Shown one piece after another: positions 1 to 31,493 of a stretch of DNA of 62,813 nt. The number at the start of each line of letters is the position of its first letter. The first letter of the stretch is position 1. The position numbers and the translations under genes were made by a program. The notes below the pieces were generated by a model. It searched no databases and was not told where the DNA came from. It was given only the letters and a program-made list of their open reading frames with translations. Where the stretch lies: assembly GCA_903953935.1 (NCBI GenBank), contig CAJBLF010000020.1, positions 1 to 62,813 on the forward strand, given 5' to 3'. The stretch is from an uncultured bacterium. GTDB lineage: Bacteria; Patescibacteriota; Gracilibacteria; Absconditabacterales; Absconditicoccaceae.

Positions 1-1190
1 AAATTTACGACTATGAAATCAAAATCTTTTGCATGAGCGACAAATTGATCATAGATTTCTTGTGCAGACATCTCAGGATCCAAATCATACGTTGCTACTT
101 TATGTGAAGGTACGAGAATATCTTTTTCTCCATCAAATACTATTTGTCTATCACCATTAAAGAATTTCGTGACGTGAGCAAATTTCTCAGTTTCCGCAAG
201 ATGCAATTGACGAAGCTCCTTATGTGAAATCACTTCAGGTAATGTATTTTTAAGCGTAATCTCTTTGATAAATGTTGGTCATTCGTATTCTTTGTACAAT
301 TTTGTCATCGTTGCAAAATAGATATTACTGAGTCTCTTGATTAAAAAATGTCTGTCTCGTGTAGGATATTCTTCAGCATTTTTTTTGTTGATAGATACCA
401 TGATTGCTTGGGCCATCTGTCTTGCTCTATCAGATCTGAAGTTGAGATGAAAAATTGCATCATCACTTTCTATCTGATCTCATCGTGTAAAACTCACGGG
501 TTTGATAAATTCATCGGTGATCAATTGTTCGTATTGTTTCGCAATATATTCACTTGGTGTATCACTTGTCTGTAATTGACCAAACATAATTTCATCATAT
601 GACTTCTGAACTCTTTCTCGGTTATTGTCTCTATCCATACCATAATATCTTCACGCTAAACTTGAAATCTTGACGTTGGGGAACTTGGTAATAAATTTCT
701 CAAAATCTTTCATAAGGTCTAACATACTATTTGGTGCAAGATCTCTTCCATCTCCAAAAAGATGTAAAGAAACATTTATTTCTTTGGGGATTATCTTGAT
801 TATTTTTTTCAAATGAGAATCCATCGCATGGACACCACCTGGTCAAAATAACTGAATCAAATGTAAGGTAGAATCATTTTCTTTGCAATGAGCTATCCCT
901 GCTTTAAATTCTGGTAATTTTGCAAAACTACCATCATCTAACATATCATCTATCTCGACTAAATTTTGTTTAATGACTCTTCCCGAACCGATGGTCATGT
1001 GTCCTACTTCAGAATTTCCCATCTGACCTATAGGTAAACCAACTGCTTTTTCACAAGCATCTAAGGCTGCATATGATTCAGAAAAAAGTTTTTTGAATAT
1101 AGGAGAATGTGCTTGGATGATTCCATTATGTTTAGGAGTTGTATTGTTTATTCAAAATCCGTCGAGGATAATCAGCGCAAGTTTTTTCAT
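1..1190 (-). CDS. gpmI: 2,3-bisphosphoglycerate-independent phosphoglycerate mutase, C-terminus cut by window edge
   Basis: Interconverts 3- and 2-phosphoglycerate in glycolysis; a cytosolic enzyme of the alkaline phosphatase superfamily using two Mn ions. It starts [13 protein letters not shown] (metal-binding Asp10) and carries [10 protein letters not shown] with catalytic Ser60, a GDGRD motif, [17 protein letters not shown] and [15 protein letters not shown] in family order. About 396 codons are present; the C-terminal metal-binding part lies beyond position 1. Five in-frame UGA codons fall on glycines, including the second Gly of DGFG and the Gly before RYYGMDRD, so this gene alone supports UGA=Gly. 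The ATG at 1190 gives the normal N-terminus. A promoter-like pair lies upstream at 1275-1302. Identification is very secure. Confidence 0.96.
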
Positions 1191-1302: not shown

Positions 1303-1334
1303 CAACACAAAACCACATATTTAATAATTATTAC

Positions 1335-1362
1335 TTGACTTTGTTTTTCTTTTATATATAAA
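1335..1362 (+). promoter_or_regulatory. Possible sigma70 promoter facing the flotillin gene
   Basis: TTGACT (1335-1340) and TATAAA (1357-1362) are spaced by 16 bases on the plus strand, back to back with the gpmI promoter. It would give a ~225-base leader before the SPFH gene at 1593. The rest of the 1191-1592 gap holds no gene or RNA that I recognise. Confidence 0.4.
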
Positions 1363-1592
1363 ACCCACAACAAATACAAAACAACACAACAAAAAAAGTA
1401 TGAAAAACAGACGTATGATGAATAATGGCCCTTAACACAAGGTATGGCTATAGTGATTTGCCAATAAAAATCATTTGAGGTATTCGATAGACTGACCAAG
1501 ACTACCAACAGTTTCTCCTATTGCGGTGTTGACAAACCGTAGTAGTAAATGTCACAAACAAAAATAATACATAAAAATTAAACAGTAAAAGT

Positions 1593-3926
1593 ATGGAAAC
1601 ATTATTAATGATTTTAAGTTACTGGTGGATTTTGACAATCCCAATCGGATTGTTTATTCTTACCAAGTTCTGGGTAAATGTCGGTGCCGATGAAATCGCC
1701 ACGATTGAAGTACGTTATCTCGGAAAAGAAATGAAAGACGGACGTACGGTAGCCCTTTCGGGTGAAGTCGGTATCCAGGCCAAAATTCTTGGTTCAGGAT
1801 TACACTTCCTTATCCCTTTCCTACAGGTGGCCAAAAAGTCAAAATACCTGGTCATCGCAGATGATGAAATGGGTTTAGTTACCGCAATTACCGGTATCCC
1901 GATTCCACAAGGCGAGTTTATGGCAGCCCATGTTGAATGTAGCATCTTTCAGGATGGAGAAGCCTTCCTGCGAAATGGTGGACAAAAAGGACCTCAGATT
2001 GTTGTTATCCCTCCGGGAGAAACGAGAATCAACCCGCACCTCTTTGAGGTTCGCGTAGTGAAGGCACCATTTGTTCAACAAAACCAGGTAGCCACCGTTG
2101 AAGCTATTGCAGGAGCATCGATTGAGCCGGGTAAGATCATGGCCAAATCGGTCGAATGCGACCTCTTCAAAGACGGTGTAAAATTCCTCAAAAACGGTGG
2201 CCAGCAGGGACCACAGGTGGAGATTCTGACTCCGGGTATTAATCGTATCAATACCTATATGTTCAGAATCAATTATTCACCCGTAACTGTTGTACCCGGA
2301 GGATCCATTTGTATGGTAACTGCTATGGACGGCGCGCAGATCCCTGATGGCAGATTGCTCGGTGACAAAATTGAAGGACACTCCAACTATGAAATAGGGG
2401 AGGCATTCCTGAAAAATGGCGGCAAAAAGGGTCGTCAAATCCAACATCTCATGTCGGGTACTTACCGTATCAACAAGATGTTGTTTCTCATCAGTGATCC
2501 TCAACCAATGACAGATATCGCTTCAGACGAAGTCGGTATTGTTACTATCCTTGAAGGAAAGCCGATCGTTGACCCAAGCAAAATCGCTGCGGAAGAAGTT
2601 GGTCTGGATGTTCATCAAAATTTTCAGGATGCTGACGCTTTCTTGAAAGCAGGTGGACAAAAAGGTTTACAGATTCCCGTACTCCGAGCAGGATCTTATG
2701 CACTTAACCCATGGTTTGCCTCAGTAAAACATCAGAAAATGGTGGAGGTAGAAATCGGAGAATGTGCCGTTGTCACAGGTTTCGTTGGTGATGAGGGTGA
2801 AGATACATCAGAAAGCACTGTTAACGCCAAGATCGTTGAAAACGGCAAAAAAGGTATCTGGAAAGATCCTCTGGGCCCTGGACGACATGCACTCAACCTG
2901 GAAATCTGTAAGGTGGACATCGTTCCTACCACGCAGATACTCCTCAGCTGGGCAAATGACGAATCCAGTGCGCATAAATTTGATGCCAACCTGAAGACTA
3001 TTACCCTGAGAACTGCTGATGCATTCAATGTGAATATGGACGTTCGCGTCATCATACACATTGCCATGGCAGACGCACCAAAGGTGGTGGCCAACTTAGG
3101 TTCGGTAACCAACATGATCTCCCAGGTTTTGGAACCAGCAATCAGTTCGCATTTCCGTAACGCCGCACAGGCAGTACAGGCTCTTGAGCTCTATACCCAA
3201 CGTGCAGAATTACAACAGAAAGCGAAACTGCATATTCAGGAAGTACTTAAAGTACATCACATTGAGTCGAAAGACACAATGATTGCTGATGTTGTATTAC
3301 CGGAAGAACTGACCAAAACGGTTACTGACAGGCAGATTGCTAAACAGGAAAAAGAAACCTACAAGACCCAGCGCGAAGCTCAGGATGAGCGTAAGACTCT
3401 TGCAAATTCCACTGCTCAAGCAGATATGCAACCTGAGGTTGTTAAGTCTGAAAGGGGCGTTGAAATAAGCAAAAACTTCGCTGATTCCAAAATTAAGGAA
3501 GCAACCGGTCTTGCTGAATCCACAAAGATTAAAGTCAATGTGGATGCTACAAACATCGAAACCATGGCAAATGCAGAAGCTAAAGCCACAAAGGTTAAAG
3601 CTGGTGCTGAAGCCGAAAAGATTGATGTTATCGGTACCAAGGAAGCTGAAATTATTCTGAAGAAAGGTAAGGCTCAGGCTGAAACCAACAAACTGAATAT
3701 CGAATCCATGGGTGCTGATTATGCCAAATTAAAGATGATCGAAGAAATCGTTAAGGGCAACCTGAAACTGATTCCGGACAACATCATCGTAGGTGGTGGC
3801 GAAGGCGGTGGTTCTACCGTTGAGAGCTTCTTGGGCATCGCAATGCTTGAAAAACTTACCGGTAAACCCTTCACTGAACTGAAACAGCTTGCTGCTAAGG
3901 CTACAACTGAAGAAGAAAAGAAGTAA
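1593..3926 (+). CDS. Flotillin-like SPFH/band 7 protein with N-terminal tandem repeats (777 aa)
   Basis: Membrane-anchored scaffold protein. A hydrophobic segment (about residues 7-28) precedes tandem units of about 65 residues, each with a 'V-T-A...G..I..G', 'FL.NGG.KG.Q' and 'I.PG..RIN' pattern (roughly residues 90-385). A band 7/SPFH domain (about 390-560) and a long Ala/Glu/Lys-rich helix (about 560-735) follow, then a Gly-rich stretch. Flotillins form oligomers on membrane microdomains. The order repeats, SPFH, long helix also resembles the major vault protein. No in-frame UGA occurs although glycine is abundant, and CTG, GGC and GGT are common, unlike neighbouring genes; it ends in UAA. 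It precedes two other UGA-free genes and has its own terminator. The SPFH assignment is secure; the biological role is not known. Confidence 0.85.
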   Translation: METLLMILSYWWILTIPIGLFILTKFWVNVGADEIATIEVRYLGKEMKDGRTVALSGEVGIQAKILGSGLHFLIPFLQVAKKSKYLVIADDEMGLVTAITGIPIPQGEFMAAHVECSIFQDGEAFLRNGGQKGPQIVVIPPGETRINPHLFEVRVVKAPFVQQNQVATVEAIAGASIEPGKIMAKSVECDLFKDGVKFLKNGGQQGPQVEILTPGINRINTYMFRINYSPVTVVPGGSICMVTAMDGAQIPDGRLLGDKIEGHSNYEIGEAFLKNGGKKGRQIQHLMSGTYRINKMLFLISDPQPMTDIASDEVGIVTILEGKPIVDPSKIAAEEVGLDVHQNFQDADAFLKAGGQKGLQIPVLRAGSYALNPWFASVKHQKMVEVEIGECAVVTGFVGDEGEDTSESTVNAKIVENGKKGIWKDPLGPGRHALNLEICKVDIVPTTQILLSWANDESSAHKFDANLKTITLRTADAFNVNMDVRVIIHIAMADAPKVVANLGSVTNMISQVLEPAISSHFRNAAQAVQALELYTQRAELQQKAKLHIQEVLKVHHIESKDTMIADVVLPEELTKTVTDRQIAKQEKETYKTQREAQDERKTLANSTAQADMQPEVVKSERGVEISKNFADSKIKEATGLAESTKIKVNVDATNIETMANAEAKATKVKAGAEAEKIDVIGTKEAEIILKKGKAQAETNKLNIESMGADYAKLKMIEEIVKGNLKLIPDNIIVGGGEGGGSTVESFLGIAMLEKLTGKPFTELKQLAAKATTEEEKK

Positions 3927-3958
3927 ACTTCCTAACGGCTCAGAGCCGTACTCTATTT

Positions 3959-3992
3959 GGAGGCTCTCGTATATGAGAGCCTCCTTTTTTTT
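3959..3992 (+). terminator. Rho-independent terminator after the SPFH gene
   Basis: A perfect 10-bp stem (3959-3968 with 3975-3984) with a six-base loop is followed by eight T's, 33 bases after the SPFH stop codon. Confidence 0.9.
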
Positions 3993-4112
3993 AATCGAGA
4001 TACTACAAAAGGACAAACAATATATCATCCTTTTATGACCTCGAGCGTATCCTGACAGTTGTCAGTATATTACATCATTAATATACCATTAAAAAAACAA
4101 AATAACAAAAGT

Positions 4113-6452
4113 ATGAAAAAATTCTGGTTTGAAATGCTTCTGGTCATATTAGGAGTCATAGTGTTTTGCATTCCTGATCCTGACCCGAAAAATACGGTCA
4201 TCCTCCAAGCCATCGGTATCGTTATGATTTTGGTGGCTGCTATTTGGTTGTTTGTTCATCTCAAGATGATCAAAGCGAATAGTACGCAGAATACACAATT
4301 TCCGGTAAGACAGCGGATGCAAAGCAATAATCTTGGTGTCACACCCGGAGATACTCACTATACTGAGGAACCATATGTGCCTAAACAACGGGCATCACCC
4401 CCTACACCATCTAAACAACAGACCGTCTCTGTATCCAACAAAGAAGCTGAAAGAAGACAAGCTTTGGATGCGCAGATTGAAACATTCCGTACATCAACGG
4501 AAACAACGATTCTGGATGTGGATGATGTACACTATTCGATAAGTTTACGGATAAATGCAAATGAATCCCAATACCTCTGTGAACGAATCATATGTCCTGT
4601 ATTTGGCATGAATGCCACTGTCTGGGACATCAAACAAAAAATCGACTCATTCACTCTTTCCGATAAGGAAATAGTCGATATTCTTGACCATGGCACAGAA
4701 CGGCTTCAAAATCGATTGATGAATACCTGTGTATCCCGCGGTTGGACTATGTCAAATACTATGTTCGATACTCTCCTCAAAACCAATAAACTGCGCTTAC
4801 TGGAATTGCCTTATTGTACTTCAGATATGTTCAGAAAACTCATCAGTCAAATGGATCCATACGAACGCTTAGGCTATCGTATACGACCCAATGGACAACA
4901 TGAAGAACAGGATGGTATCTTGGAAAACGCACTCACTCAGGAAAGTATCCCCTATTATGAAGATATCAATACCGATATCGTCTATGTAGCAGAACAACAA
5001 TTCCCGAACGACAACGCTCTCCGCACCTATGCTTTCGATACCGTTTTTGCAGGTCCTTGTGATATAGTAGAAACCATCGGACGCCTGGATGATATCTCCA
5101 AAGAAGAAGTTCAAAAAATCTTTGGACGTGGGAATACCCAGGAGATGGATAAACTCCTTGAACGCAGTGATAGTGATACTATCGTGGATTATCTTCCACC
5201 TAAGTATGCCATCAAGGTAGTGCTCGGTGTGATACCATCAGAATACAGCGACTACATCCATGAGAATTTCGATTTCGATACAGTAGATCATACCGTATGG
5301 TTAGAACTTTTCGAAGAACTGACCCCGGATGAATTGACTGGACATCGTATGAATAAAATCTCTGACGATGAAGAGCCCGAAGGTTATCTCACAGAGGATG
5401 GAAAAGAAGATATCCCCTACTATGCTACCGGCGATCATGATATCATCAATCTGATCGAAGATCATGCCAGTGATGATGATGCCATCAGAAAACCTGCTTT
5501 TGCTAAAGTAGCTAAAGCTCGGTATATCAAAGATATCATCGAAGCACTCGACAATGTAAAAGATTATGAAGTCACTAACATCATGGAACGCAACAATGCC
5601 GAAGATATAGAAGCATTACTCGAAAGAAGCGATGCTGACGATATTATCGGTGATCTTCCTGATGAAGTGGCTATCAAAATCCGACTCCAACTCCTCTACG
5701 AATCTGCATCAAGCAATGTTGAAAACTATTATGAGTTCAACAACAGCGGCGCGTTTATTGCTATTATCAATGAACTTTCCCCTTATGAATTGCTTGGATT
5801 CCGTATGAAACCAAATACTTCTGATGAAGTTGCTACTTGTTCACTCACCAACCAGGAATATCCTGAAGAGAAAATTATGTTCTATAATGATGCTGATTAT
5901 GACATCATCACGCTCATTGAGAGTCAGATGAAAGATGATAAATATCTGCGACAACTTGCATTTGCGAAGCTTTGTGAGTCCAAGAATATGGATGACGCCA
6001 TCGGCCGTTGGGAGAACATCACCCAGGAAGAGGTGGCAGCTATCATCGCACGAGGATTCACAGATGAACTTGACGCGCTCATGGGAAGAGAAGATTTCGA
6101 TGCTAATATCGTGGATAAACTCCCCGATGAATTCGTTATCAAACAATTCCTCATTGGCGACAATGGAACGATTAACGAAGCATACAACAATCGTATCGAT
6201 GACAAAAAATTTCGGAAGAAGGTTGAATTACTCACCACTTCACTCTCTGACAAAATGACGGAAGATGAAGAGCAAGGTGACGTTAGTGACCTATCCGATG
6301 ATATTGTTATCAAGATTACGCTTTCGTTGATTGATCCTTCTGACCACCAATGCAGCTTCGATCACGATGACGTTACAAGCGAATTTGTGGAAAGGCTGGA
6401 GGGTGATGAATTCAAAACAAAAGTGGCAACACTTGTACAAAACCTTATGTAA
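4113..6452 (+). CDS. Membrane-anchored protein with three ~150-residue acidic repeats (779 aa), function unknown
   Basis: I do not recognise a named family. Two hydrophobic segments (about residues 5-20 and 28-50) precede a Pro/Gln-rich linker (about 55-110) and a largely acidic soluble region. That region contains three tandem repeats of about 150 residues starting near 247, 403 and 555, each with a 'PYE.LG.R' start, an 'IPYY'-like box, 'EV..I..R' and a 'LLERSD.D.I...LP' to 'AIK' end. The ATG at 4113 is chosen because an upstream in-frame ATG would add 18 residues before the hydrophobic start; both this gene and the previous one have AAAAGT before the ATG. There is no in-frame UGA and the stop is UAA. 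It belongs with the SPFH gene and the small gene downstream in an apparently imported cluster. Confidence 0.8.
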   Translation: MKKFWFEMLLVILGVIVFCIPDPDPKNTVILQAIGIVMILVAAIWLFVHLKMIKANSTQNTQFPVRQRMQSNNLGVTPGDTHYTEEPYVPKQRASPPTPSKQQTVSVSNKEAERRQALDAQIETFRTSTETTILDVDDVHYSISLRINANESQYLCERIICPVFGMNATVWDIKQKIDSFTLSDKEIVDILDHGTERLQNRLMNTCVSRGWTMSNTMFDTLLKTNKLRLLELPYCTSDMFRKLISQMDPYERLGYRIRPNGQHEEQDGILENALTQESIPYYEDINTDIVYVAEQQFPNDNALRTYAFDTVFAGPCDIVETIGRLDDISKEEVQKIFGRGNTQEMDKLLERSDSDTIVDYLPPKYAIKVVLGVIPSEYSDYIHENFDFDTVDHTVWLELFEELTPDELTGHRMNKISDDEEPEGYLTEDGKEDIPYYATGDHDIINLIEDHASDDDAIRKPAFAKVAKARYIKDIIEALDNVKDYEVTNIMERNNAEDIEALLERSDADDIIGDLPDEVAIKIRLQLLYESASSNVENYYEFNNSGAFIAIINELSPYELLGFRMKPNTSDEVATCSLTNQEYPEEKIMFYNDADYDIITLIESQMKDDKYLRQLAFAKLCESKNMDDAIGRWENITQEEVAAIIARGFTDELDALMGREDFDANIVDKLPDEFVIKQFLIGDNGTINEAYNNRIDDKKFRKKVELLTTSLSDKMTEDEEQGDVSDLSDDIVIKITLSLIDPSDHQCSFDHDDVTSEFVERLEGDEFKTKVATLVQNLM

Positions 6453-6473
6453 ATCACGTAAACACAACAGACT

Positions 6474-6752
6474 ATGTTTGAAACTATTATCCAAAAAATC
6501 ACCCAGCTTTCACAGCTCCCCCAGTTTTCTGGTGGGACTGTGGAGCACGGATTGTTTAGCGTCATTGTTATCGCTATAGCAATCTGCATAACACTCTTGA
6601 TCATCTTGGTGGTCAGAGTTATCGTAAAAGGACTCGTAGAAATCTGGAAATTGGGCTGTGACGTGCGTAAAAAATCGTTGGACACGAAAGTGCAGATCGA
6701 ACAGGAACGCACCAAAACATCACAAGCCGGAAGAAGACTCAGTAGTTCCTAA
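6474..6752 (+). CDS. Small single-pass membrane protein (92 aa)
   Basis: Unrecognised. An N-terminal amphipathic stretch is followed by one strongly hydrophobic segment (about residues 27-52) and a basic, charged cytoplasmic-type tail. It begins 21 bases after the stop of the repeat protein, so the two are probably co-transcribed, and it is followed by a strong terminator. It has no UGA and ends in UAA like the two genes before it. It could be a membrane partner of the SPFH protein, but it has no NfeD-like features; that link is inference from position only. Confidence 0.7.
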   Translation: MFETIIQKITQLSQLPQFSGGTVEHGLFSVIVIAIAICITLLIILVVRVIVKGLVEIWKLGCDVRKKSLDTKVQIEQERTKTSQAGRRLSSS

Positions 6753-6777
6753 GTACTTTACCAATGTTATTCTATTG

Positions 6778-6807
6778 AAGGCGCCGTTGTCACGGCGCCT
6801 TTTTTTT
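6778..6807 (+). terminator. Terminator closing the UGA-free gene cluster
   Basis: A 10-bp GC-rich stem (6778-6787 with 6792-6801) around a 4-base loop is followed by a T-run. It separates the cluster from the convergent comM gene. Confidence 0.9.
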
Positions 6808-6833: not shown

Positions 6834-8378
6834 CTACTCTGCTTCTACAAACATCGTCTTGCTTCTATATTGCAGTGCTTCTGCTAAGTGATTGATGCTA
6901 ACACATTCTTGTCATTGCATATCAGCTATTGTCCTTGCTAATTTCATGGTGCGATGTACGACTCTAGTCGACAAGGTTAATTTCTTTGATGCCTCGGAGA
7001 GAAAATGTTTACAATCGTCCGTTAATGGAATCAATTCACTGATATATTTTGCGGTGATCTGTGAATTGGATGTGATAGAAAATCAGATGAATCTTTGTTG
7101 TTGAATCTTCCGTGCGTTGACAACCTTTTCTTTTATACTACCTGAATTTTCTTCGATGATATTATTTAAAATTTTATCTATGTCTTCGCGTGGTATTTCC
7201 AAAATCATATCGATACGATCCAATAAGGGTCACGAAATTTTGCTTTGATAACGCTTGATATCTATGAGTGAACACGAGCAATATTTTTCGGAATCTTTGT
7301 AATATCCACACTTGCACGGATTCATTGCACCGACAAACATAAAATTTGCTGGATATTGAATCGTGCCTGCGACGCGCGAAATCACAACATATCTATCTTC
7401 AAGTGGTTGACGCAATACCTCTAACACTTCGCGCGGAAACTCTGTTACTTCATCGAAAAACAAAATTCACTTGTGCGCTAAACTAACTTCACCCGGCGTC
7501 AATTGTGATCCTCCTCCCACAATAGAAATCTTGGAAGCTGTATGGTGAACCTGACGAAATGGTCTCTTGATAATTAATGGAATATCTTTTGAAAGTTTAC
7601 CAACGAGTGAATATATCTGTGAGACCTCGAGAATTTCTTCGAACCCTAGTGGCGGCAAGATGCTCGACATGGCTTTGCTCAGCAATGTTTTTCCACTTCA
7701 CGGTGCACCGACCATGAGGACATTGTGGAGTCCTGCAGCTGCAATCGCTAGTGCCCTCTTTGCTATCAACTGTCCTTTGATCTGAGCGAAATCTACTTCA
7801 TGCGTATTGGTTTGCTCATACAAATTTTCAATATTTTTTGCTTGATTGATACCACATAATTCTTTTCCTTCTAAAAAATATTCTATCATCTGATCAAACT
7901 TTCCTATCGGATATATCTCTATCCCTGGGACATATTCCAATTCATAGACATTTTCTTCCGGCACGAAAAAATGTTTGTAGCCATGATGCATAGCGCTTAT
8001 TACTGAGGGCAAAAGTCCATTTACACGTTTTACATTTCCGTCTAATCACAATTCTCCGAAGTAAAGAAATTCTTTCTGTGGGATTTTTATTTTATCTTCG
8101 AATATCAAAAATAATATTGCTACCGCCATCGGCAAGTCAAAACTTGTCCCAACTTTTTTGATATCCGAAGGCGAAAGATTTAACACAATTTTTCTATTGG
8201 GAAGCTGGATGCCAGCATTACGAAAGGTACCTCTCAGGCGTTCTTTGGACTCTTTGATCGCGGCATCCGGTAGTCCAACAATTTCTATCGTGGGCAACGA
8301 TTTACTCGAATCTGCTTCAATGATAATCTCATGTCATTCGAGTCCTACGTTGGCGTACGTCTTGATTTTTTGGATCAT
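6834..8378 (-). CDS. comM: ComM/YifB family Mg-chelatase-like AAA+ ATPase (514 aa)
   Basis: YifB/ComM proteins are hexameric helicases that promote branch migration during natural transformation. The N-terminal domain shows the typical 'IEIVGLPDAAIKESKER' start, the AAA+ core has a P-loop GAPGSGKT (about residues 224-231), Walker B 'ILFFDEV', a Cys cluster 'NPCKCGYY', the 'DRIDMILEIPR' sensor region and a C-terminal lid. One UGA codes for a P-loop glycine and another for the Gly before ILFFDEV, so the standard code would destroy the enzyme. Length is normal for the family. The DUF559 gene lies immediately upstream on the same strand (10-base gap), so co-transcription is possible. Confidence 0.95.
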
Positions 8379-10747: not shown

Positions 10748-10960
10748 TTATTTAGTCTTTTTGACTGGGCATGTTGTCATGCCTAATAATGTGTAGAGAC
10801 CACAAAAACGAGTAAGTGCAGTGATCAATGAAACGATTCCTACCACAAGCAATATGATACCTAGAGTACCTGTCACCGTCTTGGTGAAGTACAGTACTAC
10901 CAAAATAATGAAGATAAGTATTCTTACCATCTGATCTGCTGTGCCGATGTTTTTTTTCAT
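10748..10960 (-). CDS. DUF2892 small membrane protein (70 aa)
   Basis: Starts MKKNIGTADQMVRIL, has two hydrophobic helices separated by a Gly-rich turn, and ends 'ALTRFCGLYTLLGMTTC' then PVKK, exactly the DUF2892 (YgaP membrane domain-like) pattern with its two cysteines. The family forms a two-helix inner-membrane module often near sulfur or redox genes; its role here is unknown. The ATG at 10960 is chosen over upstream in-frame codons because MKKNIG is the standard family start. Confidence 0.88.
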   Translation of the reverse strand: MKKNIGTADQMVRILIFIILVVLYFTKTVTGTLGIILLVVGIVSLITALTRFCGLYTLLGMTTCPVKKTK

Positions 10961-11095
10961 GTATGCATAGGTAAATGAATAAAAAAAATCTTTATTTGTT
11001 TTTATGCTTCTGTGAGAGGAATACAAGTGAGGGTGAAATGCTTCGCTGGACTTACCTTTTCTTTTGATAACTTTTTAAAACTTAATTTTTCTTCT

Positions 11096-11274
11096 ATCGC
11101 CTCGCCGGCTAGGCGTTTCTTTTTTCCTCCCAGGTGAAAAAAGAAACCAAAAAAACCCTCGTCGCCATTAGGGCAATATCACATATTACCTTAGATCATA
11201 TTCTGATAGCGACCTATCCAGTTGGTAGGTCCCCCTACTCGACCTCCTTTTCACACTGATTCAATAATGGCGAC
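11096..11274. repeat. ~180-bp TIR element, copy A
   Basis: A perfect 12-bp hairpin (11115-11126 with 11136-11147) is followed by a unit bounded by GTCGCCATTA (11161-11170) and TAATGGCGAC (11265-11274), with an internal GACCTA/TAGGTC hairpin. Nearly identical to 19098-19276 over the TIR-bounded part. It fills most of the 10961-11315 gap, where no gene is seen. Confidence 0.9.
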
Positions 11275-11315
11275 ATAAAAAAACAATCTTTAACTTTTAC
11301 TCTCAACTTTCAATT

Positions 11316-11699
11316 CTAATTTTGAAATTCTTGTAGTATAGTGATAAGGTGAGTTTGAAGTTCTTTGAGTTTGTAGGTGGGTAAAGAGATACCGAGTTTA
11401 CCGTATCCACTGTAGGTAGGAGATTGTAGCCATTGCCTTATCTGAAAGCTTTTGATCCCTCTAAATTCACTAATGGAAATTTTAAATAGGTCTGTCCCCT
11501 TTTTGAGACTTCCATATTCCTTGAGTATATACTTCGTTGCATCGATGGCTTGTACGATATCATTGAGTAATTTCGTTTCTGATTGATTGAAAATTATTGT
11601 TGCAGCACTCTTGGAGATAATTAGTGAAGGCTCCGATTTGTATGGTTTCACCTCTAAGTTTACATAGGTATTTGGTGCTGTTTGGATTCTGTGAATCAT
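11316..11699 (-). CDS. PC4/p15-like single-strand DNA-binding protein (127 aa)
   Basis: The C-terminal half ('FKISISEFRGIKSFQIRQW', then 'GKLGISLPTYKLKEL') matches the transcriptional coactivator PC4/YdbC fold, which binds single-stranded DNA as a dimer: the F.G...IR strand and the G-I-S-L-P strand before a helix are the diagnostic parts. The N-terminal half has a similar strand-rich composition but no clear match. No UGA. It lies just upstream of the helicase gene on the same strand, which suits a DNA-metabolism role, but I assign it only from motif. Confidence 0.55.
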   Translation of the reverse strand: MIHRIQTAPNTYVNLEVKPYKSEPSLIISKSAATIIFNQSETKLLNDIVQAIDATKYILKEYGSLKKGTDLFKISISEFRGIKSFQIRQWLQSPTYSGYGKLGISLPTYKLKELQTHLITILQEFQN

Positions 11700-11801: not shown

Positions 11802-13235
11802 TTATTCAAAATAGTTGAGATAGTCTGCGAGTGATTGATGTGGAGTAGTTGATGTAGAAAGTACGGTCTGGATAAATGGTTTGATAGAAGGGTGAAAAAA
11901 TAAGTGTCTTCTCTCTATCTTGTTGAGTAAGGTTATACCAGCCAATGTCTTGGATCTACTCAATGCGGTATAGGCCTGTCCTCCGGTAAATGTATTGTGT
12001 AAATCTAGATTACATGCATCAAAAGTCATACCTTGTGATTTGTGAACGGTTATAGCATAGGCTAGTTTGAGCGGAAATTGATCGTAGGTCCCTAAAATAT
12101 TTTCAGTAATTTTACCTCTACCGGAAACCGTAATCTCTTTATTCGCCCATGTTTCTTGGGTCACTGCAATAATCTCTCCGTCTATATTTACTTCGACATA
12201 ATCCTCTCCGAGATCTTTGATGATTCACATAGATCCATTGATTCGTTTGCCAAAAATATCGTTGGTCACCATCATGACTTTGGCTCATTTTTTGAGTTTT
12301 AATATATCGTCCGTCTTCTTCATAGAGTCAGGAAAAAATCCATCAGTCCGTCATTCGTAGAGATATTCTTCTCCAGGAATCTGAGAAATTTTTTGGATAT
12401 TTATTTCGTCGACCTTGCCTCTGTGAGTAGATAGCATAATAGTATCTGCAGATGCTTTACCTATTTGACCATTGAGTTTGATGATATGTTCTTCGGAAAT
12501 AGTTTCGTTTCTTATAGCATCAAGGATATCTCAAAACACTATATCATCCCCTTGTCTATAATTTTTTTTGAGCTCTATCGTCGTGTAGATAAGTTTTTTT
12601 TGAAAAGTCTTGGAGTCGAAAAATCGTTCGCTCGCATATTCCTGACCGAATTTTTGTCTTCGTTCTTGAGTACTTACCGGTGGAAGTTGGAAGACATCAC
12701 CTACAAATATCATCTGCTTACCTCAGAATGGTTGTTTACTCAAACTCTCATCTCCCGTCTCTTTGGCAAGATAATATTTCATCAAGAGGTCGATACAGTC
12801 GATGGTATTTGCGTTGACCATACCGATTTCGTCGATGATAATAAAGGGTACGTTGAGTAACGTCTGTATCTTGGATTTTTTGAGTTTATATTTTCTATTT
12901 TTTTTGTCGACGAGATATGGCTTGATCTCTTTGGGAAATACATTGTCTATACCCAAAGAAAAAAATGAATGAATAGTCTGGCCCCCGATATTGAGGGCTG
13001 AAATACCTGTAGATCATAAGATCAACGGTGATGTATCTATCTCTTTACAAAAGCCTATAACATCCTTTACCAAGGTAGACTTACCCGTGCCCGCTTTCCC
13101 GGTTAAGAAACAAGAGTCATTCGTCTCGTCCAACGATTTCAAAAAATAGATAGCTTCTGGATTATCTTTTCGTTTGGTGAGTATCTCTTTGTAGCTTGCT
13201 TGCTCATCTTCTGAACACTCCTTGATATGCAACAT
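11802..13235 (-). CDS. Pif1/RecD-like superfamily 1B DNA helicase (477 aa)
   Basis: ATP-dependent 5'-3' DNA helicase. Motif I is 'CFLTGKAGTGKSTLVK' (about residues 42-57), motif Ia 'STGISALNIGGQTIHSFF', motif II 'IIIDEIGMV', motif III 'IFVGDVFQLPPV', and the C-terminal part has 'LAYAITVHKSQGMTFD' and 'GQAYTALSRSKT', the SF1B motifs V/VI. UGA encodes several glycines, including the first residue after 'DTSPLIL' that begins motif Ia. Length and lack of other domains fit bacterial Pif1-like proteins rather than RecD of RecBCD. It has its own consensus-like promoter (13283-13310). Substrate is unknown. Confidence 0.92.
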
Positions 13236-13282
13236 TTCTTCTCTCGCTAGGTAAAATAAAAAAAATTATGACTCCTTCGGTC

Positions 13283-13310
13283 TTTATACGTATCGCCACC
13301 CTATTGTCAA
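13283..13310 (-). promoter_or_regulatory. Promoter of the Pif1-like helicase
   Basis: On the minus strand TTGACA (13305-13310, consensus) and TATAAA (13283-13288) are 16 bases apart, about 48 bases before the ATG. Confidence 0.7.
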
Positions 13311-13377
13311 TCTTATTTTTGACAGAAAGGATGTGTCCTATTTTATTGCATATTTCATCTCTTTATTTGCATATATA

Positions 13378-13761
13378 TTACCCATTGAGGACTGCAAACA
13401 ATGTTTGAGAGAACCTCTTTTTATCCGCGGGTTTATATATGATTTCGTCAAATGCCTCAATATCTACTTGAGTATTGGGCAATAAGTCAGCCGTATAGGC
13501 AATGATCTTGGGTTTGTTTTCACTATAATGAGATTTTATCTCTTTAGATGCTGCAATACCGTCCATCCCTGGCATCCCGACATCCATAATAATAATATCA
13601 TATTTATTTTTTGTCGCCTCCTCTACTGCAGAAATTCAATTCATGACTACGGTAATATTATGAGATGCTATTCCCACATATTCTGTAAATTTTTGTGCTA
13701 ACATACAACTGTGAATATTATCATCAACCACCAATACTCTTTTCGCTGCCAATCCCCCCAT
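13378..13761 (-). CDS. Stand-alone response-regulator receiver domain (127 aa)
   Basis: CheY-like receiver: 'KRVLVVDDN' acidic pair, phospho-acceptor Asp in 'YDIIIMDVGMPGMDG', Thr in 'IIAYTAD' and Lys in 'EIIYKPAD'. One UGA encodes the Gly in 'VVMNGISAVEE'. No output domain follows, so it would act by protein contact or as a phosphorelay intermediate. The ATG at 13761 (MGGLAAKRVL) is used; upstream in-frame sequence is hydrophobic and AT-rich and is unlikely to be coding. No histidine kinase gene is in the window. Confidence 0.93.
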
Positions 13762-23535: not shown

Positions 23536-24531
23536 TTAGTATCAGTTGTGCTCTTCGGAGAGGGTATTTAGGAGTGACTGATAGCCGGTACCGAGATATC
23601 TCTGAAGCACAGGTGTTTGATCGTATCTCTGTATCGCGACAAGATAGGTGTGCGTCTCGTCGTTTGGCTCATCGTATCTATCATACATATAATACAGGTA
23701 ATTTCCCTCAATATGTACTCCTATACTATTGAGATCTTTCAGAATCTGCGTCTCATGGATCCCATCGGGTCCTACATCGATAGCCAGGAGCCCAAATGTT
23801 CACTCCCCTGCGAATGAATCATCAGATCCCAGTATATAGAGCTTGTTTTGTTCCTTGTCATAGTGATCACTAGCACAATAATATTCCTTGTATCCTTGGT
23901 TGTCTATGCCCTGCACGACTATGCTTCAGCACCCTTCGTATGGTGATAGATAGTAGATAAATGCCCTTTTACCCTTAAGTATCTCATTTAATCATCAAAA
24001 ATTCGTCTTTTGTAGCTCCGCATCGCATATTCCACAATCTTTGCATGTTGACGACATACACTCATTCCAGCTCTTCCTGTTCTCTGCCACATAGCTTGTA
24101 GGCAGCGTCCATTCTCCTGTCCCCTCCTGGACGACAAAATGATCATCCACTCATCGGCCTGTTCCCGTATCTCCTTGCCAAGTAATACGTATCGATCCTG
24201 TCTCCATGATAGCCTTCTCGACCATCTCAACCCCATTCCTGCCAGCTATCTCTTCATCCTTCATCTTCTGAATCACGTTCTCGATCGCTTCTCAAACATA
24301 TCCACGATCGAACTCTCTTGCTCATTCAAAGGTCAATATCCCGCTTTGATACGCTATCACACCTTCTTCGATTCATCATATCATGTTCTGCCCTGTTGTT
24401 ATATTCGTGGATTTATTTTTTACACTAGACATTGCTTCTCATCTCTCTGTATTCCGCCTGAAATACCCAAATACACATCAGCCAATCACCATAAGTACTA
24501 AAACGAGTATGAGAACATGTATTCTTTTCAT
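23536..24531 (-). CDS. Lipoprotein of unknown function (331 aa)
   Basis: The N-terminus 'LVLMVIGGCVFGYF' contains a lipobox (GGC, one Gly by UGA), so it is likely a lipid-anchored surface protein. The mature region has a Cys cluster ('WNECMSSTCKDCGICDA', about residues 160-176) and beta-rich segments; no known domain. More than ten UGA codons encode glycines. It is followed by a terminator and is not obviously co-transcribed with the next lipoprotein gene. Confidence 0.75.
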
Positions 24532-27874: not shown

Positions 27875-28702
27875 ATGAAAAAATTTCTTCGGCCCCTCGT
27901 GATTATTCTCCTTATTATTATTGGAATATTCTTCTATATTACAAAGAATCCTTCCATTCCTCTTTCTACAGAACTCTTGGATACCGTCTGAGTATCCGTC
28001 AAACAAGATACGCTCAGTACAGGCACAGAAGTTGATCTTACCAATTGTATCAGTTACTATAATGGATGTAATGTCTGTATGGTCTCTGGTGGTGTTGTCA
28101 ACTGATGTACGAAAATGGCTTGCCCGACCTTTGAAGAACCAAAATGTCTGGAATATGCAGCCACAGGAGTAGATTTACTTAGTGGTGCTCAAACCATTAC
28201 AGGTGACAATAGTATACCCACGGTACCAGCAAATATGACTGCCTTTTCAGATCCAGAACTCCGTATAGCATTTTACTATCCCAATACATGGTGAACACCT
28301 ATCAAACAATATGAAACCTGGAATCAATCGACTTATGGTATCACCCTCTCCAACGGAACACCAAATACGCTATTTCTCGCTGCCTACAATGGCAATCCTA
28401 TTGCTCCTAGATGAGCATATTGGTGAGATGCAGCACTACACATAAATAGTAGTACATTCATCAGTAATTTCTGTGCAGACAAAACTGCCTGCTCATGACT
28501 TATGAACAGTAATGGCGTACCATATATTAAATGGTATTTTGAACAGGGAGAAATGGGAAGCGATCAAACTACAACTATACTCCTCTATTATCTCTTTAAT
28601 CCCAATTCTAGTTTTCGTGGCGTAATTGTTTCCAACGAAAGAATGCTCAACGAACCGGAAGCAAATTTTGATGCATTAGTAAATAGCATTCAGTTCAATT
28701 AA
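27875..28702 (+). CDS. Exported Cys-rich protein, paralogue 1 of 4 (275 aa)
   Basis: An N-terminal hydrophobic anchor (about residues 4-21) is followed by a Cys motif 'NCISYYNGCNVC' and 'GCTKMAC' to 'EPKCLEYA', shared with the next two genes, then a beta-rich domain. It has two cysteines late in the chain ('NFCADKTACSG'). UGA encodes several glycines. It starts the tandem set 27875-31493, all on one strand with short gaps, so it is probably the first gene of an operon. Function unknown; the Cys pattern points to a disulfide-stabilised extracellular protein. Confidence 0.75.
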
Positions 28703-28729
28703 TATTTTTATATCTCTCTCTATTTTCCT

Positions 28730-29602
28730 ATGAAAAAGGTTCTTTGGATACTTATCATCATCATTCTCTTTATCGGTGGATGATTTGTGTTTGTTGTCAA
28801 AAATCCTTCATTGCCGATTGCTCAAACGATACTTACAAGCTTAGGCCTCTCTGTCGATACCCAACAAGAAGTGCCCCCACCAACAAGCACGGGAATTGAC
28901 CTTAGCAATTGTATCAGCTATTTCGATGGCTGCAACACCTGTATGGTCTCTGGTGGTGTTGTCTGATGATGTACAAGAATGGCTTGTCAGACGCTTGCTG
29001 AACCTAGTTGCCTACAATATGCAACTACATGAGCTGAAACAACTACAGGAATAGTCGATGAAAATACATGAACGACAACTACCTATACCAATACCCAATA
29101 CTGACTTTCTTTTGATTATCCCAACAACCGAATCATCGCTACAGAAATAGGTGATGATCCCGTCGACTGTAGTCTCAAGTTTACTGTACATGTAGCTGAT
29201 CCCTCCAAAACGCTCCAATGTTTTGAACCAAATTGTGTACCTAGCATACAACCAAATATCAATGTATATATACGAAAAACAACATCATGTACCTGGTTCT
29301 CTTCTACGTGTAGTGGATTAGATCAAAGTACCCAAGCAGTATGCCAACAATTAAAAAACCTATGAATACCTGAAGCAACTGCTGCTAAAACACTTTCACT
29401 CTGAGGAAGTAATGGCTCAGACTATGTCGTACTTCAAGGTACCTATGGATATATCGTTAGATGAATTTTTTCTGAAGGAATCAATACGGTCAGCAGAGCG
29501 TTTCTCCTAGAAAAAAATGGATATGGCGTCCAAATATTTGATGATGTCTGAATGTATACCGATGTCTTTGATGAATTTGTAAAAACATTTAATTATAACT
29601 AA
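28730..29602 (+). CDS. Exported Cys-rich protein, paralogue 2 (290 aa)
   Basis: The N-terminal ~85 residues are nearly identical to the next gene: anchor 'LFIGGGFVFVVKNPSLPIA' then 'NCISYFDGCNTC' and 'GCTRMACQTLAEPSC'. The rest ('QYGLSFDYPNNRII' onward) is a separate beta-rich domain with more cysteines and no known family. The gene starts 27 bases after the previous stop. UGA codes for the Gly at the start of 'GFVFVV' and many others. Confidence 0.75.
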
Positions 29603-29629
29603 ACATTTTATTTTTTCTTCTCTACTCCT

Positions 29630-30481
29630 ATGAAAAAAATTTTCTGGATACTTATCATCATTATTCTCTTCATCGGCGGATGATTTATGTTTGTTGTCAA
29701 AAATCCTTCATTGCCGATTGCTCAAACAATACTTACCACATTAGGCGTCTCTATCGATACCCAACAAGAAGTGCTTCCATCAACAACTACAGGAATTGAC
29801 CTTAGCAATTGTATCAGTTATTTCGATGGCTGCAACAACTGCACCGTAGAAAATGGCAAACCAAGTGCATGTACCCTTATGTACTGCGAAACTCCAGGTG
29901 AACCAAAATGTAATCAATATGCGACAGGTACATCACCTGCATTAGATCCCAATTGTATCAGTTACTCTGATGGGTGTAATACCTGTAGCAAGAGTCCCAA
30001 TGACTGACCAACTGCTTGTACCGAGATGTACTGCGAAACTCCAGGTGAACCAAAATGTAATCAATATGCAACATGAGTGCAAAATCCTGTAGGATTAGCA
30101 AATCCTGCATCTACCAATTGTATAAAAAACTGATGAACACTGAATATCGTCACCCAAGCAGATGGCGGTGAAGTAGGACAAGTAGGTATGTGTACTTTAC
30201 CTGATGGAACAGTTTGCGAAGAACGATCATATATGAGAGGTTTATGTTGATGAACAACAGCTAGTGGTGACGCATGAGTCAGTCCAGGAAATCCATGATC
30301 AACACCTGATAGTGAATGACCTATTGCATGTACTATGGAATATGCACCCGTCTGTGCTAGCATCCAAGTAGAATGTATCAAAGCACCTTGTCCTCCCATT
30401 CAGCAAACCTTTGGAAATAGATGCACAATGAACGCAAATAGACAAGCAAGATTTTTATATGATGGCGAATGTGCTAAATAA
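29630..30481 (+). CDS. Exported protein with two Cys modules, DUF333 and a Kazal-like domain, paralogue 3 (283 aa)
   Basis: After the anchor, two copies of the module 'NCISYxDGCN' to 'GEPKCNQYATG' occur. A DUF333 unit follows ('NPASTNCIKNGGTL', 'GQVGMCTLPDGTVCEE', 'YMRGLC'), then a Kazal-like serine-protease-inhibitor domain at the C-terminus ('ACTMEYAPVCASI', 'GNRCTMNANRQ', 'YDGEC') with six or more cysteines. Kazal domains inhibit serine proteases, and DUF333 is often fused to them. Together with the subtilase in this window, a self-protection or host-protease role is conceivable but unproven. UGA encodes glycines inside both domains. Confidence 0.82.
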
Positions 30482-30512
30482 ATAACTATTTTTTTATTTT
30501 TTTATTTCTTCT

Positions 30513-31493
30513 ATGAAAAAACTTCTCCGAATTCTATGAATCATAGTTGTCCTCGTTGTTGCTTTCTTTGTGATTACAACACAGACTCCACGATTTAAAG
30601 ATACTCCAACGGTTGCACTAGCAAATCCTGCGTCCGTCTACTGCCAGCAACAAAGCGGAACACTAGAAATTGTTTCCGATGCAAGTGGTGCTCAATCATG
30701 AATATGTCATTTATCTGGTTGAGTTGATTGTGAAGAACGAGCATATATGAGAGGCGAATGTCCTGTGTTTGTAGATACAGATAATCAACCCAAAGAAGAT
30801 ATTCCTGTAGGTTGGGAATCTTGTGATTTTAATGAGACATATGAAATCATAAATGCAAATGATCGTACTCAATGGATATCAACACCCCTCACCTGTAGTT
30901 CCTGATCACTATTACATTTTACCAAGATAGAAGAAGATAAACAGGGTATGGGTGTCAAAGTAGACCTCTACGATACTACTACGAAGATATTTGCTGGATT
31001 TCCTGCATCGTTCAATGCTATTTGAGATCAATGATTGACCAAACTTTATTACCAGCCAGAAAAAAAACTACTGTACCGAGAGGAGTGGTGATGAGATGTA
31101 TGTTATGGAATCACCAAACTTTTTCTCTATGATTTCGGTATGCAGAAATATCTTTTTTCAGGAATAAATGAAACCCTAGAATATGATACCGTAACATTAA
31201 CTAATCAACAGGGCAATCTTCATATGCAGTGACCTATCCCACTATGATGATTGAATACTCAAGTAAGTTTTGATGGACTACAAGCTACATACAATGGTAA
31301 TACATCATATATCTACAAACTTCCCCAAGCGGTATCTTTCACCTATGAAGGATGCTGAGGAGATCTTCCGTATTCATTATGAATGACCTTTGATTTATCG
31401 ACACTTACCGTTGCTATAAGCGATACCTACAAAAAAATTATCTATAATATTTATGACCTATCCAATCCAACAACAATAGAAGATATACAATAG
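30513..31493 (+). CDS. Exported DUF333-domain protein, paralogue 4 (326 aa)
   Basis: A signal/anchor segment (about residues 5-22) precedes a short DUF333 module ('LANPASVYCQQQSGTLEI', 'CHLSGGVDCEERAYMRGEC'), as in the previous gene, followed by a beta-rich C-terminal domain of unknown type. UGA glycines are frequent, including in the DUF333 motif. It ends the tandem set, 31 bases after the previous gene. Confidence 0.75.

What the first reader, a model, noticed from the sequence alone, without database searches (positions are those of the whole stretch)
1593..6752. UGA-free three-gene membrane island, probably imported
Three consecutive genes totalling about 5 kb contain no in-frame UGA although the SPFH protein is very Gly-rich, while neighbours use UGA regularly. 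They also use CTG, GGC and GGT often and all end in UAA, the only safe stops here together with UAG. This fits transfer from a standard-code donor, which is the direction that works without recoding. The cluster is self-contained between terminators.
Basis: partly seen in the sequence, partly recalled or inferred. Interest (0 to 1): 0.7.

Follow-up and report, generated by a model that had tools for sequence, protein, structure and literature searches.

The report
Imported vault-like membrane gene island
A bacterium that reads the stop codon UGA as glycine carries a three-gene membrane cluster with no UGA at all, apparently acquired from organisms or phages that use the standard code, and its main gene encodes a membrane-anchored protein predicted to be shaped like the eukaryotic vault shell protein, with its nearest known relatives in large crAss-like phages.

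Summary
SPFH, rep and orf3 contain 100 Gly codons and no UGA, whereas the host writes UGA at 29% of Gly codons (binomial 2e-15; per-gene model 2e-3 for SPFH alone). GC is 41-45% (host 35%) and non-Gly codon usage is at host percentiles 1.5-7.6. Import from a standard-code source is well supported. The closest SPFH homologues outside the family (75%) are on crAss-like phage contigs, and the phage copy nests among the code-25 copies (one-clade tree rejected, AU p=8e-5). A homologue in a second code-25 genus has 0 of 60 Gly as UGA among genes using UGA at about 75% of Gly, and keeps an apparent old UGA-UGA stop before its terminator. A gene in a congener's island at the same gpmI-comM site has a similar relic. 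Bacteroidota chromosomes were barely searchable, so the direct donor (phage or Bacteroidota) is open; rep and orf3 have no known outside relatives. One complication: congener G006's SPFH copy is equally UGA-free but host-like in its other codons and shares a 5' leader. By predicted fold the SPFH protein is a membrane-anchored vault-protein-like repeat plus SPFH domain, probably a ring or dome scaffold.

The parts
1..1190 (-). 5' part of gpmI (phosphoglycerate mutase), host gene flanking the island on the left; the window starts inside it
   Evidence: [15 protein letters not shown]... reading frame with 5 TGA=Gly; same gene next to comM in G003, G007, G008
1318..1592 (+). promoter (TTGACT 1335-1340, 16 nt, TATAAA 1357-1362) and long 5' leader of the SPFH gene with hairpins
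   Evidence: 68% identical leader upstream of the SPFH gene in G006 only; no Rfam match; compensatory pairs TTGCGG/CCGTAG vs TTGTGG/CCACAA; fold z -2.2 in G000 but -0.1 in G006
1593..3926 (+). vault-like SPFH protein, 777 aa: N-terminal membrane helix (about 2-24), repeats of about 70 aa (four clear ones, 89-386; a weaker one on each side), SPFH/Band_7 domain (416-597), long C-terminal helix
   Evidence: Pfam Band_7 2.2e-26; repeat scores; model and PDB search; 65 Gly, 0 TGA
3959..3984 (+). intrinsic terminator of the SPFH gene
   Evidence: 11-bp stem followed by T8
4113..6452 (+). rep protein, 779 aa: two N-terminal membrane helices, then acidic helical repeats of about 130 aa
   Evidence: no family above cut-off; only relative found is in congener G001 at the same site, 39%; helices predicted at low confidence
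6474..6752 (+). orf3, 92-aa single-helix membrane protein, found only together with rep
   Evidence: only relative found is in G001, 40%, same locus
6777..6802 (+). intrinsic terminator closing the island
6834..8378 (-). comM (Mg-chelatase-like ATPase), host gene flanking the island on the right
   Evidence: Pfam Mg_chelatase 1.7e-86; 7 TGA read as Gly, one in the Walker A motif GAPuSGKT

Best explanation
The island is a horizontally acquired set of membrane-protein genes from standard-code sources, inserted between the otherwise neighbouring host genes gpmI and comM. In a standard-code source UGA is a stop, so no in-frame UGA can be present on arrival, and the genes are readable at once by the code-25 host because they end in UAA. 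Shown: absence of UGA, foreign composition in G000, same-site but different islands in congeners, phage copy nested among the code-25 copies, apparent relic UGA stops in two related imports. Inferred: that the SPFH gene came from, or shares a pool with, crAss-like phages of Bacteroidota; that rep and orf3 came the same way. Function, inferred from the fold: the SPFH protein is anchored in the membrane by its N-terminal helix and assembles through SPFH and vault-like repeats into a ring or dome; rep and orf3 are membrane partners of such scaffolds, since homologues of both also sit beside a different flotillin (with an NfeD-like gene) in congener G001.
For: 0 of 100 Gly codons are UGA against 28.6% in the host; SPFH codon usage at percentile 1.5, rep 7.6, orf3 6.9 of host genes, GC about +2 to +3 sd. 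In G000, UGA-free genes as a class have poor codon fit (p 2e-4) and high GC. Host genes shared by G000 and G006 have UGA in at least one copy at 53 of 161 conserved Gly positions, SPFH at 0 of 60. Same gpmI-comM site: SPFH in G006; NfeD-like, flotillin, rep and orf3 homologues in G001; no island in G007 (78-bp gap), only a small ORF in G003 and G008. Closest outside relatives are IMG/VR phage contigs, 75% over full length, one broken copy at 82% over 130 aa; one of them has a Crassvirus capsid protein (7.8e-12), an array of 25 tRNAs including a CTA suppressor and late genes reading TGA as Trp. G433: 0 of 60 Gly as UGA in a neighbourhood whose host-like genes use it at about 75%, gene ending TGATGA 74 nt before a terminator; its TGA is Gly (Walker A). 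G001 311-aa gene: its only TGA sits just before a terminator hairpin. AU test rejects the tree that groups the three code-25 copies apart from the phage (p 8e-5). Fold search: major vault protein first (E 1.9e-17), MVP repeat crystal structure Z 13.6 over 321 residues.
Against: The G006 copy fits its own host's codon usage (percentile 72), shares the 5' leader with G000 and differs from the G000 copy as much as host genes do at fourfold sites, which looks like long residence; yet it has no UGA. Grouping G000 with G006 is only borderline disfavoured (AU p 0.053). The phage lacks the leader. High GC by itself lowers UGA use (rho -0.56), though host genes of 43-47% GC still use it. Rep and orf3 have no relatives outside the genus, so their donor is unknown. 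The SPFH model has mean pLDDT 57 and the rep model 40. The genome is an unnamed draft with 4% estimated contamination, but both flanks of the island are host genes in one contig.
Confidence: 0.8

Rival explanations
1. The SPFH gene is an old resident (one acquisition before G000 and G006 split) and UGA is kept out of it by selection, for example because UGA decoding is slow or error-prone in an abundant scaffold protein.
For: Shared leader and shared site in G000 and G006; synonymous divergence between them as saturated as in host genes; the G006 copy has host-like codon usage. A second UGA-free gene, a secreted protein beside rpsL, is also shared by G000 and G003 at 53% identity.
Against: Large essential genes such as rpoB and rpoC use UGA at about a quarter of Gly codons; G000 codon usage and GC are foreign; closer congeners G001, G003 and G008 lack this gene; the phage copy falls inside the code-25 copies; G433 still carries its apparent UGA stop.
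Confidence: 0.15
2. The donor was a Bacteroidota cell, and the crAss-like phages took the gene from the same source, so phages are siblings and not donors. (This is a variant of the import explanation, not exclusive of it.)
For: Crassvirales infect Bacteroidota (PMC10136315); congener G003 carries a UGA-free protein with the Bacteroidota sorting domain Por_Secre_tail, so Bacteroidota-type genes do reach this genus; five of nine predicted dual-host Gracilibacteria phages also match Bacteroidetes spacers (PMC10746230).
Against: The one scan of 84,980 species genomes gave no close relative except G006, and otherwise only Clostridium at about 30%; the next deeper relatives are also on virus records. 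That scan used only two short peptide patterns, so it is weak evidence of absence.
Confidence: 0.35
3. The lack of UGA is a by-product of higher GC or high expression in native host genes.
For: UGA share falls with GC (rho -0.56).
Against: Host genes of GC 43-47% use UGA (window 23536-24531: 12 of 40; comM of G006: 9 of 30); the G006 SPFH gene has GC 38% and 0 of 64.
Confidence: 0.04

Closest known systems
Major vault protein (MVP) of eukaryotic vault particles
   Same: Predicted order of tandem beta repeats, SPFH (shoulder) domain and long C-terminal helix; top Foldseek match over the full length
   Different: About 12% identity, no MVP family hit by sequence, an N-terminal membrane helix, fewer repeats; assembly untested
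'Flotillin family' proteins of Rhizobium plasmids and Clostridium (about 680-743 aa)
   Same: Homologous over most of the length (28-31%)
   Different: Distant, standard-code bacteria, different neighbours; I found no study of them
Prohibitin, stomatin, erlin and HflK/C membrane SPFH rings
   Same: SPFH domain (Band_7 2.2e-26) and N-terminal membrane anchor
   Different: They lack the N-terminal row of vault-like repeats
YbbJ-QmcA type NfeD-SPFH pairs
   Same: The congener G001 island pairs an NfeD-like protein with a flotillin; the SPFH-NfeD complex QmcA-YbbJ is a solved example
   Different: The window island has no NfeD gene; it has rep and orf3 instead
Zeta-group crAss-like phages
   Same: Crassvirus capsid, many tRNAs, suppressor tRNA, TGA read as Trp in late genes (PMC12386605, PMC10136315)
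   Different: They use the standard code in early genes, where their SPFH gene lies; the host here reads UGA as Gly everywhere

Membership tests
SPFH/Band_7 superfamily | Band_7 domain above the curated cut-off | tested here: met
   93.4 bits against a cut-off of 23.6
SPFH/Band_7 superfamily | Oligomeric ring at the membrane | not testable with these tools
   Only a monomer model with an N-terminal helix
Major vault protein | Vault repeat or shoulder families by sequence | tested here: not met
   No vault family in Pfam for 7 relatives at E up to 5, none in PDB profile search
Major vault protein | MVP repeat fold followed by SPFH shoulder | tested here: met
   MVP first in Foldseek, E 1.9e-17; MVP R1-R7 Z 13.6, 4.8 A over 321 residues; but model pLDDT only 57
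Major vault protein | Self-assembly into vault particles | not testable with these tools
   needs purified protein and electron microscopy
Flotillin (Pfam Flot) | C-terminal Flot domain | tested here: inconclusive
   Not among Pfam hits for the window protein; profile similarity to the flotillin-2 C-terminal half, E 8e-9
Import from a standard-code genome | No in-frame UGA while the host uses it | tested here: met
   0 of 100
Import from a standard-code genome | Codon usage unlike the host | tested here: met
   Percentiles 1.5, 7.6 and 6.9 in G000; not met for the G006 copy
Import from a standard-code genome | Tree groups the gene with standard-code relatives against the species tree | tested here: met
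   AU p 8e-5 against one clade of the three code-25 copies; order within G000/G006/phage unresolved; SPFH only, rep and orf3 untestable
Import from a standard-code genome | Relic UGA stop codon | tested here: met
   In related imports of G433 and G001; the window genes end in UAA, so not informative there

The most novel reading that the evidence does not exclude
Phages whose early genes are readable in both codes carry vault-like membrane scaffold genes between Bacteroidota and UGA-glycine Gracilibacteria repeatedly, some into one chromosomal hot spot, and the arriving genes are translated past their old UGA stop codons, giving C-terminally extended proteins; the UGA-free state may then persist because resident copies keep being replaced or because UGA is selected against in them.
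Probability: 0.3. Interest if true: 0.75.

Novelty: new variant of a known kind. Interest (0 to 1): 0.58.

Why it matters
Gene flow into a recoded lineage leaves a directional mark here: genes from standard-code sources arrive without UGA, and an old UGA stop becomes a readable glycine codon. The apparent relic stops in G433 and G001 make this testable by proteomics. The finding also links crAss-like phages to a small-genome bacterium that is not their recognised host, and shows a protein predicted to have the architecture of the eukaryotic vault shell in phages and Candidate Phyla Radiation bacteria.

Tried and rejected
Rfam search of the leader gave nothing at E up to 1; ARAGORN found no tRNA-like gene in the first 9 kb; the leader pattern is absent from viral contigs. 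Rep and orf3 were searched in viral contigs, rep also in phages, plasmids and 380 genomes of the phylum and both in 49 genomes of the family; only G001 answered. Shine-Dalgarno use does not discriminate, since the host itself has almost none (1 of 97 genes). Reading the phage late-gene TGA as Gly (which would have made it a code-25 phage) was rejected: same-protein Trp counterparts and the better lysozyme score with Trp, 115.8 against 108.1 bits; the long LRR protein scored slightly better with Gly. The review of RNA-repair systems that I recall as discussing TROVE and SPFH modules is not held. Rep folded as a single sequence gave a poor model. A sliding comparison of rep with itself showed divergent repeats, but several top rows were overlaps of a segment with itself. 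The first AU test used only two code-25 copies and did not decide.

Full report
The window is contig C20 of a 1.3-Mb draft genome of a bacterium in which TGA is sense. Its comM has TGA at conserved glycines, one in the Walker A motif (GAPuSGKT), so it uses code 25 like Gracilibacteria. Their 100 Gly codons include no TGA, against 28.6% in 131 host genes sampled from the window and 13 other loci of the genome. The simple binomial probability is 2e-15; allowing for gene-to-gene spread it is 2e-3 for the SPFH gene alone. GC is 0.45, 0.41 and 0.44 against 0.346 (sd 0.035), and codon usage outside glycine puts the genes at the 1.5th, 7.6th and 6.9th percentile of host genes. Zero-TGA genes in this genome are generally poor in codon fit and high in GC, which fits a class of imports.

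Position. In G007, comM is followed after a 78-bp gap by gpmI; in G003 and G008 only a small gene lies between them. In the window, in G006 and in G001 an island sits at this site. G006 has an SPFH gene 75% identical to that of the window, plus a second gene of its own that does use TGA. G001 has an NfeD-like gene, a different flotillin (Band_7 plus Flot), a rep homologue (39%), an orf3 homologue (40%) and two other genes. Since comM is about 90% identical between G000 and G001, rep at 39% is too divergent to be a simple vertical copy; this is a locus with turnover. Rep and orf3 occur only in G000 and G001 among 49 family members, and together.

Source of SPFH. The only close relatives found outside the family are on IMG/VR virus contigs (75% over the full length; a broken copy on another contig reaches 82% over 130 residues). 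The 178-kb contig has a Crassvirus major capsid protein, an array of 25 tRNAs including a CTA suppressor, and late genes in which TGA is sense. Trp is the better reading there, from same-protein counterparts (GNuIPIGN and GNWLPIGN) and a lysozyme profile score of 115.8 with Trp against 108.1 with Gly. This is how zeta crAss-like phages are described (PMC10136315, PMC12386605). The phage SPFH gene lies in a TGA-free region of its contig. More distant relatives are on other virus records and in Clostridium and Rhizobium.

A third code-25 copy is in G433, another genus of the family. It has 0 of 60 Gly as TGA, whereas neighbouring host-like genes use TGA at 75% of Gly codons, and TGA is Gly there by its Walker A motif. 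After the acidic tail the gene reads TGA TGA, and 74 nt further is an intrinsic terminator; in code 25 the frame runs on to a TAA behind the hairpin. I read this as the donor's stop codon. A 311-aa gene in the G001 island has the same signature: its only TGA, at codon 299, lies directly before a terminator hairpin. A tree that groups the three code-25 copies to the exclusion of the phage is rejected (AU p 8e-5), so there was more than one transfer between this family and that gene pool; the direction, from standard code into code 25, is indicated by the relic stops and by the lack of TGA.

A complication. Between G000 and G006, host genes have TGA in at least one copy at 53 of 161 conserved glycines, with much turnover, while SPFH has 0 of 60 at similar synonymous saturation. 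The two share a 5' leader, which suggests one arrival and long residence, and the G006 copy has host-like codons apart from TGA. Either two arrivals brought the leader along, or TGA is kept out by selection or repeated replacement. The AU test for G000 with G006 is borderline (p 0.053). A parallel case is a TGA-free secreted protein beside rpsL in G000 and G003, 53% identical, with a Bacteroidota-type sorting domain in the G003 copy. I leave this open.

Function. The SPFH model (mean pLDDT 57) matches major vault protein best, over the whole length (E 1.9e-17), and the MVP repeat crystal structure at Z 13.6 over 321 residues; prohibitin, erlin and stomatin follow through the SPFH domain. Sequence profiles do not find MVP. 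The N-terminal helix is hydrophobic, so I infer a membrane-anchored vault-like ring or dome. Rep has two membrane helices and an acidic helical repeat region, predicted poorly; orf3 is a small membrane protein. Their co-occurrence with two kinds of SPFH protein suggests that they are partners of the scaffold. In the phages the SPFH gene lies among an AAA ATPase gene, a gene with weak DUF2828 and DUF7788 matches, and a gene whose sequence (DVTGSMG) looks like a von Willebrand A domain, the last of these from reading the sequence, not a profile hit. What the scaffold protects or holds is unknown.

Weighing. Standard-code import is the best account (0.8 for the whole statement; the functional part alone I would put near 0.6). 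Phage as the direct donor is plausible but cannot be separated from a Bacteroidota cell here, because the only scan of cellular genomes used two short peptide patterns. Published work already argues that code-11-compatible phages reach Gracilibacteria and that several of them also match Bacteroidetes spacers (PMC10746230), which makes the route credible.

Noticed in passing
window 1318-1592 and L015:8560-8857: Conserved 5' leader of SPFH with hairpins and compensatory changes between G000 and G006, no Rfam match; possible uncharacterised cis-acting RNA.
   Followed up: partly
L071:44-1141 (G000 contig C13) and L029:13873-16981 (G003): UGA-free secreted repeat proteins beside rpsL; the G003 copy has a Bacteroidota T9SS sorting domain and is 53% identical to the G000 one; 0 of 32 and 0 of 88 Gly as UGA.
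   Followed up: partly
L063:17655-19284 (G000 contig C4): Two adjacent UGA-free genes that look like pyrF and pyrE from their sequences (0 of 27 and 0 of 15 Gly), one with foreign-like composition; probably another import.
   Followed up: no
L028:6149-7084 (G001): 311-aa protein whose only in-frame UGA lies directly before a terminator hairpin: apparently a relic stop codon.
   Followed up: yes
L092:6971-7411 and 10859-11656 (G433): Further UGA-free genes among genes that use UGA at most glycines, including one that reads like a 5'-nucleotidase.
   Followed up: no
L049 and L047 (178-kb phage contig): crAss-like phage with TGA read as Trp in late genes, a CTA suppressor tRNA among 25 tRNAs, and purA and guaB (by sequence) near its SPFH gene.
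   Followed up: partly
L037:5961-7703, 2213-3520, 12628-13521: Phage SPFH neighbours: a protein with weak DUF2828 and DUF7788 matches, an AAA ATPase and a von Willebrand-A-like protein; might be one functional unit.
   Followed up: partly
window 27875-31493: Row of four similar-looking membrane-anchored genes (MKKxLWILIIIILFIGGGF... type) with UGA at roughly 30 to 45% of Gly codons.
   Followed up: no
L040:8001-8859: SPFH gene of a second phage contig is broken and internally deleted, so the gene may be dispensable there.
   Followed up: partly
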